Part shown: piece by piece, positions 3,575 to 6,538 of the stretch
Position numbering within the stretch: the first letter of the stretch is position 1
How the letters are laid out: every line of letters starts with the position of its first letter
NCBI GenBank assembly: GCA_030753015.1
Contig: JASMDC010000040.1
Location: forward strand, 3,239 to 30,853
Direction of reading: 5' to 3'
Source of the DNA: Candidatus Undinarchaeales archaeon
GTDB lineage: Archaea > SpSt-1190 > JASMDC01
Length of the DNA stretch: 27,615 bases
Position numbers and translations under genes: made by a program
Notes under the pieces: generated by a model
The model's database searches: none
Seen by the model: only the letters and a program-made list of their open reading frames with translations
Told to the model about the DNA's origin: nothing

Positions 3575-4486
3575 CTAACCCAATTCGTCCCGCACCAGCC
3601 GTGCTGCGGCCACCAGGTTCCGCAGCTTGGCGTCCGCCGTCTTCCGAGGGAGCTTCTTCAGCCCGCAGTCCGGGTCCGGTACCACCCGCTCGGGCCCCAG
3701 CAGCTCGCACGCCCTGCGGATGAGCGCGGCCACCTCGTCCACTGTCTCCACCCGGGCGTCGTCGGACCTGACGCATCCCAGCCCGATGCGTTGGACCGTC
3801 CCCGTATCGGCCACAGCGTCCAGAAGCTGCGGATCGGCAGCGAACTCGAGGTCCAGCACCGCAACGGGCATCCCGGCCAGCGCGTCGAGGACAGGGGCCA
3901 CCTTCCCGCACACATGGAGCGTCACGGGCACCTCGAGCCCCCGTACCACCTCGGCAACGAGCTCTTGTGCGTACACCGGTAGGTCCACGGAGAAGAAGGG
4001 CTCGTCCACCTGGACGACAGGAGCGCCGGCGGCCTCGAGCGCACGCACCTCGGCGTTGAGCGCCCTGGCCAGGGCGAAGGCGGCGTCCTCCTCCCGGTCG
4101 TAGTGCGCGTTCACGCACCCGCGTGCCAGGGTGTAGGGACCCGTGACGATACCCTTCACTGATGCACGCCCGGCGGCCACCTCACGGGCACGGACCAGGT
4201 CATCGGTCGTTATAGACCGTCGGAAGGACACATCATCGAAGATCACCGGCCGGCCCTTCATCCGGATGCCCCCGAGACGGGATGCGAACAGCGACACGAT
4301 ACCCGCCCGGGTCTGGCCGTCCGAGATGATGTCCAGGCCAGCTGCGAGCTGGGCCTCCACCGCCTGCTCCAGGGAGAGCAGGTACGGATCGCGTCCCGTA
4401 CGGTAGGCGGCCATGCACTCGGCGTGTGTAGGGTGGACCGGGTAGGAGCCCACAACCGTTGTGGGAAGGAGCTCGGGCACGGTCAC
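3575..4486 (-). CDS. metE: Core (C-terminal-domain only) methionine synthase, MetE-like
   Basis: 303 residues, corresponding only to the catalytic C-terminal barrel of cobalamin-independent methionine synthase (about 755 residues in bacteria). It starts with the family's VVGSYP motif. The zinc ligands of MetE have counterparts with matching spacing: His191 and Cys193 in HVCGK, Glu214, and Cys274 in DPDCGLKK. VDEPFFS (160-166) matches the homocysteine-site loop. Core MetE enzymes of archaea are known or thought to take methyl from methylated corrinoid proteins instead of polyglutamyl methyl-folate. The GTG start at 4486 overlaps the mtrH stop as GTGA. A longer frame upstream of this GTG exists but lies antisense-free over mtrH and lacks family similarity. 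Location behind mtrA and mtrH suggests that MtrA is its methyl donor (inference). Confidence 0.85.
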   Translation of the reverse strand: MTVPELLPTTVVGSYPVHPTHAECMAAYRTGRDPYLLSLEQAVEAQLAAGLDIISDGQTRAGIVSLFASRLGGIRMKGRPVIFDDVSFRRSITTDDLVRAREVAAGRASVKGIVTGPYTLARGCVNAHYDREEDAAFALARALNAEVRALEAAGAPVVQVDEPFFSVDLPVYAQELVAEVVRGLEVPVTLHVCGKVAPVLDALAGMPVAVLDLEFAADPQLLDAVADTGTVQRIGLGCVRSDDARVETVDEVAALIRRACELLGPERVVPDPDCGLKKLPRKTADAKLRNLVAAARLVRDELG

Positions 4487-5412
4487 GGCAGCCGCCTCGC
4501 GGGGTGGTCGTCGGGTACGGCCACACCGAAGTAGTCCTCTGCGCCCTCGGCCACCAGCCGGGCGGTGAAGGCCACTGGCGGGTACACCAGGGGCGTATTC
4601 TCGACCCTCCCGGTGAGCACCAGATCGGCCCCCCAGGACACGGGCAGTGCAGCGGCGGCCGCGTCGGCCGCGTCGAAGTCCGCCGGCCGCCCCTCGCGCC
4701 AGCCGCGCATCCATCCCCAGGCGTGGAGCGTGTTGTGGAGCGCGCACCCGACAGGGAGGCCGAACCGGCTCTTGAACACCGGGATGGCGCGCAGGCATTC
4801 GGCGGCGCCGGTTCCGAAGGGCGTTGCGCCCGTGTCGAGCAGCACCCGATCGATGCCCGCGTCCTCGGCGATGGCCAGCAGCCCCGTGTCCAGGAGCTTG
4901 GCCCCGTCCTCGAGGATGGCCAGTCGGCCGTCGGTGGAGGGATCAGCGGGATTGAAAGCGAGCACGATGGCCGCCGCTGGCGTGTTGGATGCCAGCGCCT
5001 CCCGCTCTTCCTTGGTGATGCCGATGTTCAGCGAGTTGTAGATAGTGCGGTCCAGCAGACCCGACTTCCCCAAGTGCTCGAGCACCGCCGGGCGCAGGGC
5101 AGGATCGGGGATGTCAACGGAGAAGGGTGCGTCGGGGGGCAGCACATCGCTCACCACCTCGATCCGCTCCGGTAACGTGGAAAGATCGCGCACCGCCACA
5201 TCAGGCAGGAACGGTACCCCGGTCACCTGGGCCAGCGTCAGTGCGCTCTCGAGCGCCTCGAACGCCGCGGTCCGGGCATCGTCATTCATGGTCCAATACC
5301 GTTTGCCCACGAACGCCGTGGCCACCAGGACCGGAGGCCGCTCCCCGGGCTGACCCCCGAACTCCAGGTCGCCCACGCACACACGTCGCTGCTCGGTCGT
5401 GAAGCCGATCAT
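4483..5412 (-). CDS. mtrH: MtrH-like methyl-tetrahydropterin:corrinoid methyltransferase
   Basis: 309 residues, close to the length of MtrH, the catalytic subunit of the methyl-H4MPT:coenzyme M methyltransferase complex. MtrH moves the methyl group from N5-methyl-tetrahydromethanopterin to the cobalt of the MtrA corrinoid. The N-terminus (VGDLEFGGQPGERPPVLVAT) matches the MtrH start. The (beta/alpha)8 pterin methyltransferase pattern follows, including SVDIPDP, YNSLNIG, LDTGATPFGTG and CALHN. The ATG at 5412 overlaps the mtrA stop as ATGA, and its own stop overlaps the metE start, so the three genes should be translationally coupled. The other Mtr subunits (B-G) are not nearby, so a sodium-pumping methanogenic complex is not indicated. 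The pterin donor (H4MPT or H4folate) cannot be told from sequence. Confidence 0.88.
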   Translation of the reverse strand: MIGFTTEQRRVCVGDLEFGGQPGERPPVLVATAFVGKRYWTMNDDARTAAFEALESALTLAQVTGVPFLPDVAVRDLSTLPERIEVVSDVLPPDAPFSVDIPDPALRPAVLEHLGKSGLLDRTIYNSLNIGITKEEREALASNTPAAAIVLAFNPADPSTDGRLAILEDGAKLLDTGLLAIAEDAGIDRVLLDTGATPFGTGAAECLRAIPVFKSRFGLPVGCALHNTLHAWGWMRGWREGRPADFDAADAAAAALPVSWGADLVLTGRVENTPLVYPPVAFTARLVAEGAEDYFGVAVPDDHPARRLP

Positions 5413-5993
5413 CCGTTCACCTCCGCTGGTCGCACTTCGCCGTACGGATCAACGATGACCGTCGCGTGCACGCCCACGCCTCCGGCCATCCCCGAGTGGT
5501 CGGTGGCGTGTCGCACACGCTCCACGGCGAACGGAGCGTTCATGGGACCGGGATTCCTGGCCCTGCAGTCCTCCAGCGTCCTGCGAAGGACGGCCGGACC
5601 GGTCTCGCCGAGCAGGTCGATGACCTCCACCTGCTGTCGGAACCGCTCGATTGCGTCGTCACCGATGTTCTCGACGAAGGGCACGGCCCCCGGTGCGCCG
5701 ATGATCCGCCGCCGCTCGTCAAGGCCATTGCGAACCAGCGCCAGCAGCGATGCGCCCGACAGGTGGCCGCGCACGTCGGCGCCAACGAGCACCACGAAGC
5801 GAAGCCGGGGGTTGGAGAGGACGTTGGCGATGAGCGTCTCGATACCGATGTTCTCCGTGCGCAGGGGCCCCCACACCGCCGTCAGGTCCGCGGGGACCTC
5901 CACCTGCCCGCCCATAGTGACGACGACCACAGGCGACGAGGCTTCGCCGCGCATGATATCGCCTCCCCAGGGGTACAGACCGTCATCGGCCAC
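5409..5993 (-). CDS. mtrA: Soluble MtrA-like corrinoid methyl carrier
   Basis: 194 residues from a GTG at 5993. In methanogens MtrA holds the corrinoid that receives the methyl group from MtrH. Conserved MtrA blocks are visible: WGGDI near the N-terminus, SSPVVVVTMGG, WGPLRTENIGIETLIANVLS, RFVVLVGADVRGHLSG and IGAPGAVPFVENI. His77 in GHLSG corresponds to the cobalt-coordinating histidine region of methanogen MtrA. The C-terminal membrane anchor of methanogen MtrA is missing, and the last ~40 residues are a soluble extension, so the protein is probably cytosolic. A longer frame opens upstream, but a TATA-like box at 6015-6022 is about 25 bases before this GTG, which fits a leaderless mRNA and decides the start. 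First gene of mtrA-mtrH-metE. Confidence 0.85.
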   Translation of the reverse strand: MADDGLYPWGGDIMRGEASSPVVVVTMGGQVEVPADLTAVWGPLRTENIGIETLIANVLSNPRLRFVVLVGADVRGHLSGASLLALVRNGLDERRRIIGAPGAVPFVENIGDDAIERFRQQVEVIDLLGETGPAVLRRTLEDCRARNPGPMNAPFAVERVRHATDHSGMAGGVGVHATVIVDPYGEVRPAEVNG

Positions 5994-6011: not shown

Positions 6012-6060
6012 CAGCTTTTTAGCTATTGCGCGGGCCGCACCGCCCGACATCCTTATAATA
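6012..6060. promoter_or_regulatory. Divergent promoters of the mtrA and gcvH operons
   Basis: On the minus strand the A/T-rich core CTAAAAAG (6015-6022) is centred about 25 bases from the mtrA GTG. On the plus strand TTATAATA (6053-6060) is 44 bases before the gcvH-like ATG at 6101, leaving a short leader with a GGGAG ribosome binding site at about 6088-6092. The two operons may share regulation because their promoters are within 50 bases. Confidence 0.55.
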
Positions 6061-6100: not shown

Positions 6101-6538
6101 ATGGACGTGGACGGGTACGATTATCCAATGGACCTCCACTACTCCAAGGACCATGTCTGGGTCCGGACGGAGGGAGAGTGCGTCAGGATAGAGTTCACCG
6201 ATTTCGCCCAGGATATCGCCGGCGGTCTGCACTACGTGCGGGTGTTCCCCGCGGGGAAGCGGATCGAGACGGGTCGCGCTCAGGGTACCGTCGGTACGGG
6301 CAAGTGGGTCGGCCCCGTGGTCGCTCCCGTGTCCGGAACGGTGGTCGAGCCCAACGAGCGCCTGGCCTGCGAACCCGGTCTGGTGAACAGCGATCCCTTC
6401 GGCGATGGATGGTTCGCCATCGTGGCCCCTGACAACCTCGATGACGGTCTGAGAGGGCTGGTACGGGGCGATGAGCCGTCCTTCGAAGGATGGATGAAGG
6501 AACGTATGAACGCCACCAGGGGGGAGGCACACACATGA
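6101..6538 (+). CDS. gcvH: GcvH-like lipoyl carrier protein
   Basis: 145 residues, slightly longer than the ~125-130 of the glycine cleavage H protein. H proteins carry a lipoyl-lysine arm that shuttles the aminomethyl intermediate between P, T and L proteins. HYSKDHVWVR at the N-terminus is the family start motif. GTVGTGKWVGPVVAPVSG (62-79) aligns with the lipoylation site and places the modified lysine at Lys68, followed by the conserved VSGTV turn, NSDPFGDGW and a C-terminal helix. The usual E-S before the lysine is replaced by G-T-G. No gcvT, gcvP or lpd is in the window. It starts an operon with a HEPN-like gene and thiI, divergent from the methionine operon. Roles could be glycine cleavage feeding C1 units, or a lipoate-binding carrier of another pathway, as known for archaeal GcvH-like proteins in sulfur metabolism. 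Confidence 0.82.
   Translation: MDVDGYDYPMDLHYSKDHVWVRTEGECVRIEFTDFAQDIAGGLHYVRVFPAGKRIETGRAQGTVGTGKWVGPVVAPVSGTVVEPNERLACEPGLVNSDPFGDGWFAIVAPDNLDDGLRGLVRGDEPSFEGWMKERMNATRGEAHT

What the first reader, a model, noticed from the sequence alone, without database searches (positions are those of the whole stretch)
3575..5993. Stand-alone MtrA-MtrH-core MetE operon: a probable corrinoid-based methionine synthesis pathway outside methanogenesis
Seen: mtrA, mtrH and a 303-residue MetE core are coupled by 4-nt overlaps (ATGA, GTGA) behind one promoter. MtrA lacks the membrane anchor of methanogen MtrA, and no other Mtr subunits are present. Known: MtrH moves methyl from methyl-H4MPT to MtrA cobalt; archaeal core MetE enzymes act with methyl-corrinoid donors. 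Inference: methyl-pterin to MtrH to soluble MtrA to MetE to methionine, replacing a folate-dependent enzyme.
Basis: partly seen in the sequence, partly recalled or inferred. Interest (0 to 1): 0.75.

Follow-up and report, generated by a model that had tools for sequence, protein, structure and literature searches.

The report
MtrA–MtrH–MesA methionine synthesis operon
In archaea that do not appear to make methane, two parts of the methane-making machinery (a vitamin B12 protein and its methyl-loader) sit in one conserved operon with a small methionine synthase, which suggests that this widespread archaeal gene set makes the amino acid methionine.

Summary
On the minus strand, mtrA (5993-5409), mtrH (5412-4483) and a 303-aa MesA-type core methionine synthase (4486-3575) are joined by ATGA and GTGA overlaps. 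The genome shows no MCR, MtrE or MetH. The same operon is complete in 27 other genomes, one Altiarchaeales and 26 in the phylum of a Thermoplasmatota MAG. Its MtrH forms its own clade, apart from methanogen Mtr. Catalytic residues of all three proteins are conserved in 29-31 loci. In four relatives the operon MesA is the only MetE-family protein, no MetH was found, and MetF is present. In three Thermoplasmata loci metF directly precedes mtrA; in 21 loci a DUF4346 gene follows mesA. Best reading: MetF → methyl-pterin → MtrH → MtrA cobalamin → MesA → methionine, a three-protein analogue of MetH. The pterin may be folate rather than H4MPT, because no Mch was found in those four relatives; the window genome does have an H4MPT Wood-Ljungdahl pathway. 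MtrA as MesA's donor was already predicted for methanogens (Price 2021, 2024). New here are the non-methanogen operon, its breadth, and the MtrH and MetF linkage. Nothing has been tested biochemically.

The parts
5409..5993 (-). mtrA: soluble corrinoid protein, 194 aa; His77 (=His84) as cobalt ligand, Glu47 (=Glu54), GAVPFVEN motif, no membrane anchor; C-terminal ~40 aa extension shared by operon-type MtrA, predicted disordered
4483..5412 (-). mtrH: methyl-pterin:corrinoid methyltransferase, 309 aa; pterin-binding residues D100, N126, D193, N227 conserved
   Evidence: residue roles from PMC10998594
3575..4486 (-). mesA: core (MesA-type) methionine synthase, 303 aa; Zn ligands H191, C193, E214, C274 and homocysteine ligands S14, Q58, D161
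   Evidence: residue roles from PMC7857596
5409..5412 (-). mtrA/mtrH 4-nt overlap ATGA
4483..4486 (-). mtrH/mesA 4-nt overlap GTGA
5417..5424 (-). Shine-Dalgarno-like GGAGGTGA before mtrH, inside mtrA
   Evidence: sequence inspection
6053..6060 (-). TATA-like element in the divergent intergenic region between mtrA and a gcvH-like gene; promoter not tested
   Evidence: sequence inspection only

Best explanation
The operon encodes a dedicated, soluble, cobalamin-dependent methionine synthase made of three separate proteins. MtrH binds a methyl-pterin and passes its methyl group to the cob(I)amide of MtrA. Methyl-MtrA then docks on MesA, whose zinc-bound homocysteine thiolate takes the methyl group to give methionine. 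The methyl-pterin comes from a MetF-type reductase, whose gene in some relatives directly precedes mtrA. Functionally it is an analogue of MetH with a different homocysteine domain and a different B12 domain; MtrH is only remotely related to MetH's pterin domain. Shown here by sequence: gene identity, catalytic residues, operon conservation, presence or absence of alternatives. Inferred: both methyl transfers, the physical interaction, the identity of the pterin, and how MtrA is reactivated after oxidation.
For: Translational coupling by 4-nt overlaps. mtrA-mtrH-mesA is contiguous and on one strand in the window genome, an Altiarchaeales MAG and 26 genomes of the Thermoplasmatota survey; one more is split only by a contig end. 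Operon-type MtrH is one clade, SH-aLRT 91; operon-type MtrA group together, 88. Zn and homocysteine residues are invariant in 30 operon MesA proteins and in the genome's second MesA, including the MesA/MesC-type Gln where the split-MetE control has Glu; MtrH pterin residues are conserved in 31 loci (one is cut by a contig end); MtrA His and Glu are invariant in 29. No MCR (23, 39); no MtrE in the four genomes tested; no MetH homocysteine domain in five. In four carriers the operon MesA is the only PF01717 protein. MetF is present in all five, and metF is directly upstream of mtrA in L145, L147 and L152. The MesA model matches the C-terminal half of MetE and MesD (113); the MtrA model matches cobalamin-bound M. 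fervidus MtrA at rmsd 1.3. Literature: MesA uses methylcobalamin and not methyl-pterins in vitro, and MtrA was predicted as donor.
Against: No biochemistry or genetics on any of these proteins. The window genome has a second MesA and a second MtrAH pair, so the operon is not its only possible route. No corrinoid reactivase gene was recognised in the operon. Four carriers show no Mch or CdhD/E hits, so methyl-H4MPT is unlikely there and the donor is inferred. Negative searches rest on incomplete MAGs. The split-MetE N-domain (PF08267) and MesB/MesC alternatives were not searched genome-wide by their own models.
Confidence: 0.82

Rival explanations
1. MesA here is the catalytic half of a split, folate-dependent MetE, and mtrAH next to it serve another methyl-transfer reaction.
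For: MesA is close to split MetE catalytic subunits (PMC7857596); PF08267 matches the window protein weakly.
Against: The split-MetE model PRK04326 scores 206 for the window protein and 164-188 for the others, against a cut-off of 406, while the MesA model scores at or near its cut-off; a true split MetE scores the reverse. Gln instead of Glu at the homocysteine site in all operon copies. Only one PF01717 hit per genome in four carriers. Coupling to mtrAH in 28 genomes.
Confidence: 0.06
2. The operon runs catabolically: MtrA receives methyl groups from an unknown methylated substrate and MtrH feeds them to the pterin pool and Wood-Ljungdahl pathway, as proposed for MtrAH remnants, with methionine as a side product.
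For: The usual hypothesis for MtrAH outside methanogens (PMC9635834); the window genome has an H4MPT Wood-Ljungdahl cluster with CODH/ACS.
Against: No substrate methyltransferase (MttB or MtaB type) was recognised in the conserved operon; four carriers show no Mch and no CdhD/E; metF, which makes methyl-pterin, is the gene added upstream in some operons.
Confidence: 0.07
3. MtrAH methylates coenzyme M or another thiol instead of homocysteine, and MesA is a divergent thiol methyltransferase.
For: MesA is distantly similar to MtaA/UroD-type methylcobamide:CoM methyltransferases.
Against: All homocysteine-binding residues (Ser, Gln, Asp) are kept and the MesA model scores at or near its cut-off; no MCR; four carriers would then have no recognised methionine synthase at all.
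Confidence: 0.04

Closest known systems
MesA core methionine synthase of methanogens (Methanothermobacter METE_METTM; Price et al. 2021, PMC7857596)
   Same: Single MetE catalytic domain, same zinc and homocysteine residues, NCBIfam PRK00957 (the window protein scores above its cut-off); MtrA predicted as donor; a few genomes with MesA and MtrA near each other were noted in 2024 (PMC11378808).
   Different: Described as found only in methanogens, with MtrA of the membrane Mtr complex as presumed donor. Here it is in a dedicated operon with soluble MtrA and MtrH, in genomes with no MCR found and no MtrE in those tested.
Mtr complex MtrA/MtrH of methanogens
   Same: MtrA corrinoid fold with His84 equivalent; MtrH with Asp/Asn pterin residues.
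   Different: No membrane anchor on MtrA, no MtrE found, separate clade in the MtrH tree, next acceptor inferred to be MesA and not coenzyme M.
MtxXAH and 'group II/IV' MtrA, 'subgroup II/III' MtrH (PMC4632066, PMC9982363); CoP-MtrH-metE of Ca. Methanomethylicus (PMC7886697)
   Same: Soluble corrinoid protein plus MtrH outside the Mtr operon; the Methanomethylicus case also has a metE homologue beside them.
   Different: MesA is not described as part of the Mtx operon. The Methanomethylicus corrinoid protein is of the methylamine-methyltransferase-associated kind, not MtrA, and was first read as methylotrophic.
Cobalamin-dependent methionine synthase MetH
   Same: Same overall logic: pterin domain, B12 domain, homocysteine domain.
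   Different: No PF02574 domain in the five genomes tested; the homocysteine part is MetE-like and the B12 part MtrA-like, on separate chains, with no reactivation domain seen.

Membership tests
MesA core methionine synthase | MetE catalytic domain only, no N-terminal folate domain (about 300 aa) | tested here: met
   303 aa, Pfam PF01717 over residues 7-296
MesA core methionine synthase | Curated MesA model NF002119/PRK00957 above cut-off | tested here: met
   263.8 bits vs 258; relatives 249.7-315, two of them just below the cut-off
MesA core methionine synthase | Zn ligands His, Cys, Glu, Cys and homocysteine ligands Ser, Gln, Asp | tested here: met
   H191, C193, E214, C274; S14, Q58, D161; invariant in 30 operon copies and the second MesA
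MesA core methionine synthase | Price's threshold: at least 174 bits (phmmer) to METE_METTM | not tested
MesA core methionine synthase | Methyl-corrinoid:homocysteine activity | not testable with these tools
   needs purified protein
MtrA | PF04208 domain with lower-ligand His84 and Glu54 | tested here: met
   8e-44; H77 and E47 invariant in 29 loci
MtrH | PF02007 domain with pterin-binding Asp, Asn, Asp, Asn | tested here: met
   5e-57; D100, N126, D193, N227 conserved
Methanogen Mtr complex | Membrane-anchored MtrA and MtrBCDEFG partners | tested here: not met
   no anchor; MtrE absent from G000 and G150-G152; the other subunits were not searched one by one
Split MetE | PRK04326 catalytic subunit above cut-off and a folate-binding N-domain partner | tested here: not met
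   206 vs 406 bits; no partner beside mesA; PF08267 not searched genome-wide
MetH | PF02574 homocysteine domain | tested here: not met
   none in five carrier genomes

The most novel reading that the evidence does not exclude
The MtrA-MtrH-MesA set is an old, widespread archaeal methionine synthase, the functional counterpart of MetH, and the methyl-transfer half of the methanogenic Mtr complex was recruited from such an anabolic module (or both came from one ancestor), so that many 'methanogenesis remnants' called MtrAH are in fact methionine synthases.
Probability: 0.2. Interest if true: 0.85.

Novelty: new variant of a known kind. Interest (0 to 1): 0.6.

Why it matters
The role of MtrAH outside methanogens has been called unclear and was guessed to be feeding the Wood-Ljungdahl pathway (PMC9635834). 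This operon gives a concrete, testable role in many archaea: methionine synthesis. It also makes the untested proposal that MesA takes methyl groups from MtrA directly testable with three small soluble proteins, without the eight-subunit membrane complex. It warns against reading mtrA/mtrH in metagenomes as a sign of methane metabolism, and offers a methionine route for genomes in which no MetH is found.

Tried and rejected
Relatives of the MesA in plasmids were all below 60% identity; the best one is a split MetE and was used only as a contrast. Searches of open papers for an existing description of mtrA-mtrH-metE in non-methanogens found only the partial precedents cited. A search for DUF4346 beside MtrA gave only papers on the unrelated bacterial regulator MtrA. 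Rejected: Mtr complex remnant used for coenzyme M methylation (no MtrE, no MCR); split MetE (model scores, Gln signature); MetH (no PF02574). The MtrA tree contains very long branches, so only the grouping of the operon type is used. The name of the window's organism could not be settled: only handles are given, and its 'same class' relatives have 0.6-1.1 Mb against 3.85 Mb for G000.

Full report
WHAT IS THERE. Three genes lie on the minus strand: mtrA 5993-5409, mtrH 5412-4483 and a core methionine synthase 4486-3575. They overlap by ATGA and GTGA, and a GGAGGTGA precedes mtrH. Pfam gives MtrA 8e-44, MtrH 5e-57 and Meth_synt_2 2e-45. The methionine synthase passes the curated MesA model PRK00957 (263.8 against 258) and falls far below the split-MetE model PRK04326 (206 against 406). 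A true split MetE from Haloarcula shows the opposite pattern (178 and 517.9). MtrA is taken to start at the GTG at 5993, because homologues begin at the same YPWGG motif.

CATALYTIC RESIDUES. MesA keeps the Zn ligands His191, Cys193, Glu214 and Cys274 and the homocysteine ligands Ser14, Gln58 and Asp161. The Gln is the form that Price et al. describe for MesA and MesC. All seven are invariant in 30 operon MesA proteins and in the genome's second MesA, while the split-MetE control has Ala and Glu at two of the positions. MtrH keeps D100, N126, D193 and N227, equivalent to the D102, N128, D195 and N229 that line the pterin site in the published Mtr model; they are conserved in 31 sequences, apart from one position cut off by a contig end. 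MtrA keeps His77 (=His84, lower cobalt ligand) and Glu47 (=Glu54) in 29 of 29. The predicted MtrA fold matches cobalamin-bound M. fervidus MtrA (rmsd 1.3 Å); its C-terminal extension, shared by the operon type, is predicted disordered. The predicted MesA fold matches the C-terminal half of MetE and the MesD structure.

GENOME CONTEXT. The window's genome (3.85 Mb, 117 contigs) shows no MCR, no MtrE and no MetH homocysteine domain. It has a second soluble mtrA-mtrH pair followed by methanogenesis marker 14 on contig C78, a second stand-alone MesA on C11, a MetF-type reductase on C11, and an H4MPT Wood-Ljungdahl cluster on C84 with Fwd, Mch, Ftr, Mtd and CODH/ACS. So the methyl-pterin in this organism could be methyl-H4MPT.

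CONSERVATION. A scan of one genome for each of 84,980 species with the operon MtrH found the same operon in an Altiarchaeales MAG (WJMO01000005), a 'Euryarchaeota' groundwater MAG (JACRNV010000015) and a Thermoplasmatota MAG (JANQNK010000020); in a fourth, Thermoplasmata PMV_4.75, it is broken between two contig ends that share sequence. A survey of 389 genomes of the phylum of the Thermoplasmatota MAG found operon-like MtrH in 63. Of the 30 best loci, 26 show contiguous mtrA-mtrH-mesA; three are cut by contig ends and one is interrupted by an opposite-strand gene. The other genomes with a match were not examined for gene order. With the window and the Altiarchaeales genome this makes 28 complete operons. 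Operon-type MtrH form one clade (SH-aLRT 91; 1 label change against a shuffled mean of 23), separate from methanogen MtrH and from the genome's own second copy. MtrA agrees (88), with the caution that several other branches are very long. The methanogen loci examined do not show mesA next to mtrAH within the stretches read.

WHAT THE RELATIVES ADD. In four relatives (G150-G153) the operon MesA is the only MetE-family protein; no MetH, no MCR and no CdhD/E or Mch was found, while MetF is present in every one. In three loci (L145, L147, L152) a MetF-type gene is immediately upstream of mtrA, and a fourth (L154) has a short remnant of it. In 21 loci a gene for a ~110-aa PterinBD-DUF4346 protein directly follows mesA. 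The fullest arrangement is thus metF-mtrA-mtrH-mesA-DUF4346: an enzyme that makes methyl-pterin, one that unloads it onto B12, the B12 protein, a homocysteine methyltransferase, and a small protein of unknown role. The window and the Altiarchaeales operon have only the middle three.

HOW IT MOST LIKELY WORKS. MetF makes the methyl-pterin; MtrH transfers the methyl group to Co(I) of MtrA; MtrA delivers it to the zinc-bound thiolate of homocysteine on MesA. MesA of Methanothermobacter uses methylcobalamin with a very weak affinity and does not use methyl-H4F or methyl-H4MPT in vitro, so a corrinoid protein donor has long been expected. Steps shown here: gene identity, residues, linkage, absences. 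Steps inferred: both transfers, the binding of MtrA to MesA, the pterin, and the unknown reactivation of oxidised MtrA. The lack of Mch in four carriers makes tetrahydrofolate or another pterin more likely there than H4MPT; MetF alone does not decide this.

WHAT WAS KNOWN. Price et al. [quoted passage not shown] In 2024 Price and Arkin noted that MesA-containing genomes almost always have MtrA, and that the genes are near each other in a few. A corrinoid protein of another kind plus MtrH beside a metE homologue was reported in Ca. Methanomethylicus. MtrAH outside methanogens is known, its role called unclear, and Mtx-type and non-methanogen MtrA/MtrH groups were described. No paper found in this library describes this operon in non-methanogens, its MtrH and MetF linkage, or its breadth. 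The library holds only open papers, so prior description elsewhere cannot be excluded.

VERDICT. It is a new variant of a known kind: a MesA-type methionine synthase with a dedicated, soluble MtrA-MtrH methyl-transfer pair, in archaea without a detected methane pathway.

Noticed in passing
L036:5119-7896 (genome contig C78): A second soluble mtrA-mtrH pair followed by a methanogenesis marker 14 gene (TIGR03285, 335 bits) in a genome without MCR; the same mtrAH-mmp14 order occurs in L083 and L084, which also carry an extra MtrH paralogue, and mmp14 lies beside mtrA in L075. This is a candidate function link for marker 14.
   Followed up: partly
L043:7813-8115, L044:7810-8154, L146:4566-4910 and 18 further loci: A conserved ~110-aa PterinBD-DUF4346 (PF14251) gene directly follows mesA in 21 of the loci examined; model matches link it to the C-terminal part of some longer MtrA and DHPS-like proteins. 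It may be an accessory part of this methyl-transfer system. Not found after mesA in the window.
   Followed up: partly
L145:7305-8258, L147:7226-8173, L152:4384-5316: MetF-type gene immediately upstream of mtrA; in L154 only a short remnant remains.
   Followed up: yes
L035:1480-2433 (genome contig C11): Second MesA (317 aa, 44% identical to the window copy, PRK00957 315 bits) without mtrAH beside it.
   Followed up: partly
L105-L106 (genome contig C84:58001-92000): Near-complete H4MPT Wood-Ljungdahl cluster (Fwd, Hdr-like, Mch, Ftr, Mtd, CdhA-E) with no Mer recognised in it; MetF on another contig may replace Mer.
   Followed up: partly
L069, L070, L075 (genomes G084, G123, G104): MtrA domains inside long reading frames of 486-549 codons, possible fusions, without MesA next to them.
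   Followed up: no
window 6101-6538 +: GcvH-like gene divergent from the operon, followed by ThiI; no other glycine-cleavage gene was recognised among the window ORFs scanned.
   Followed up: no
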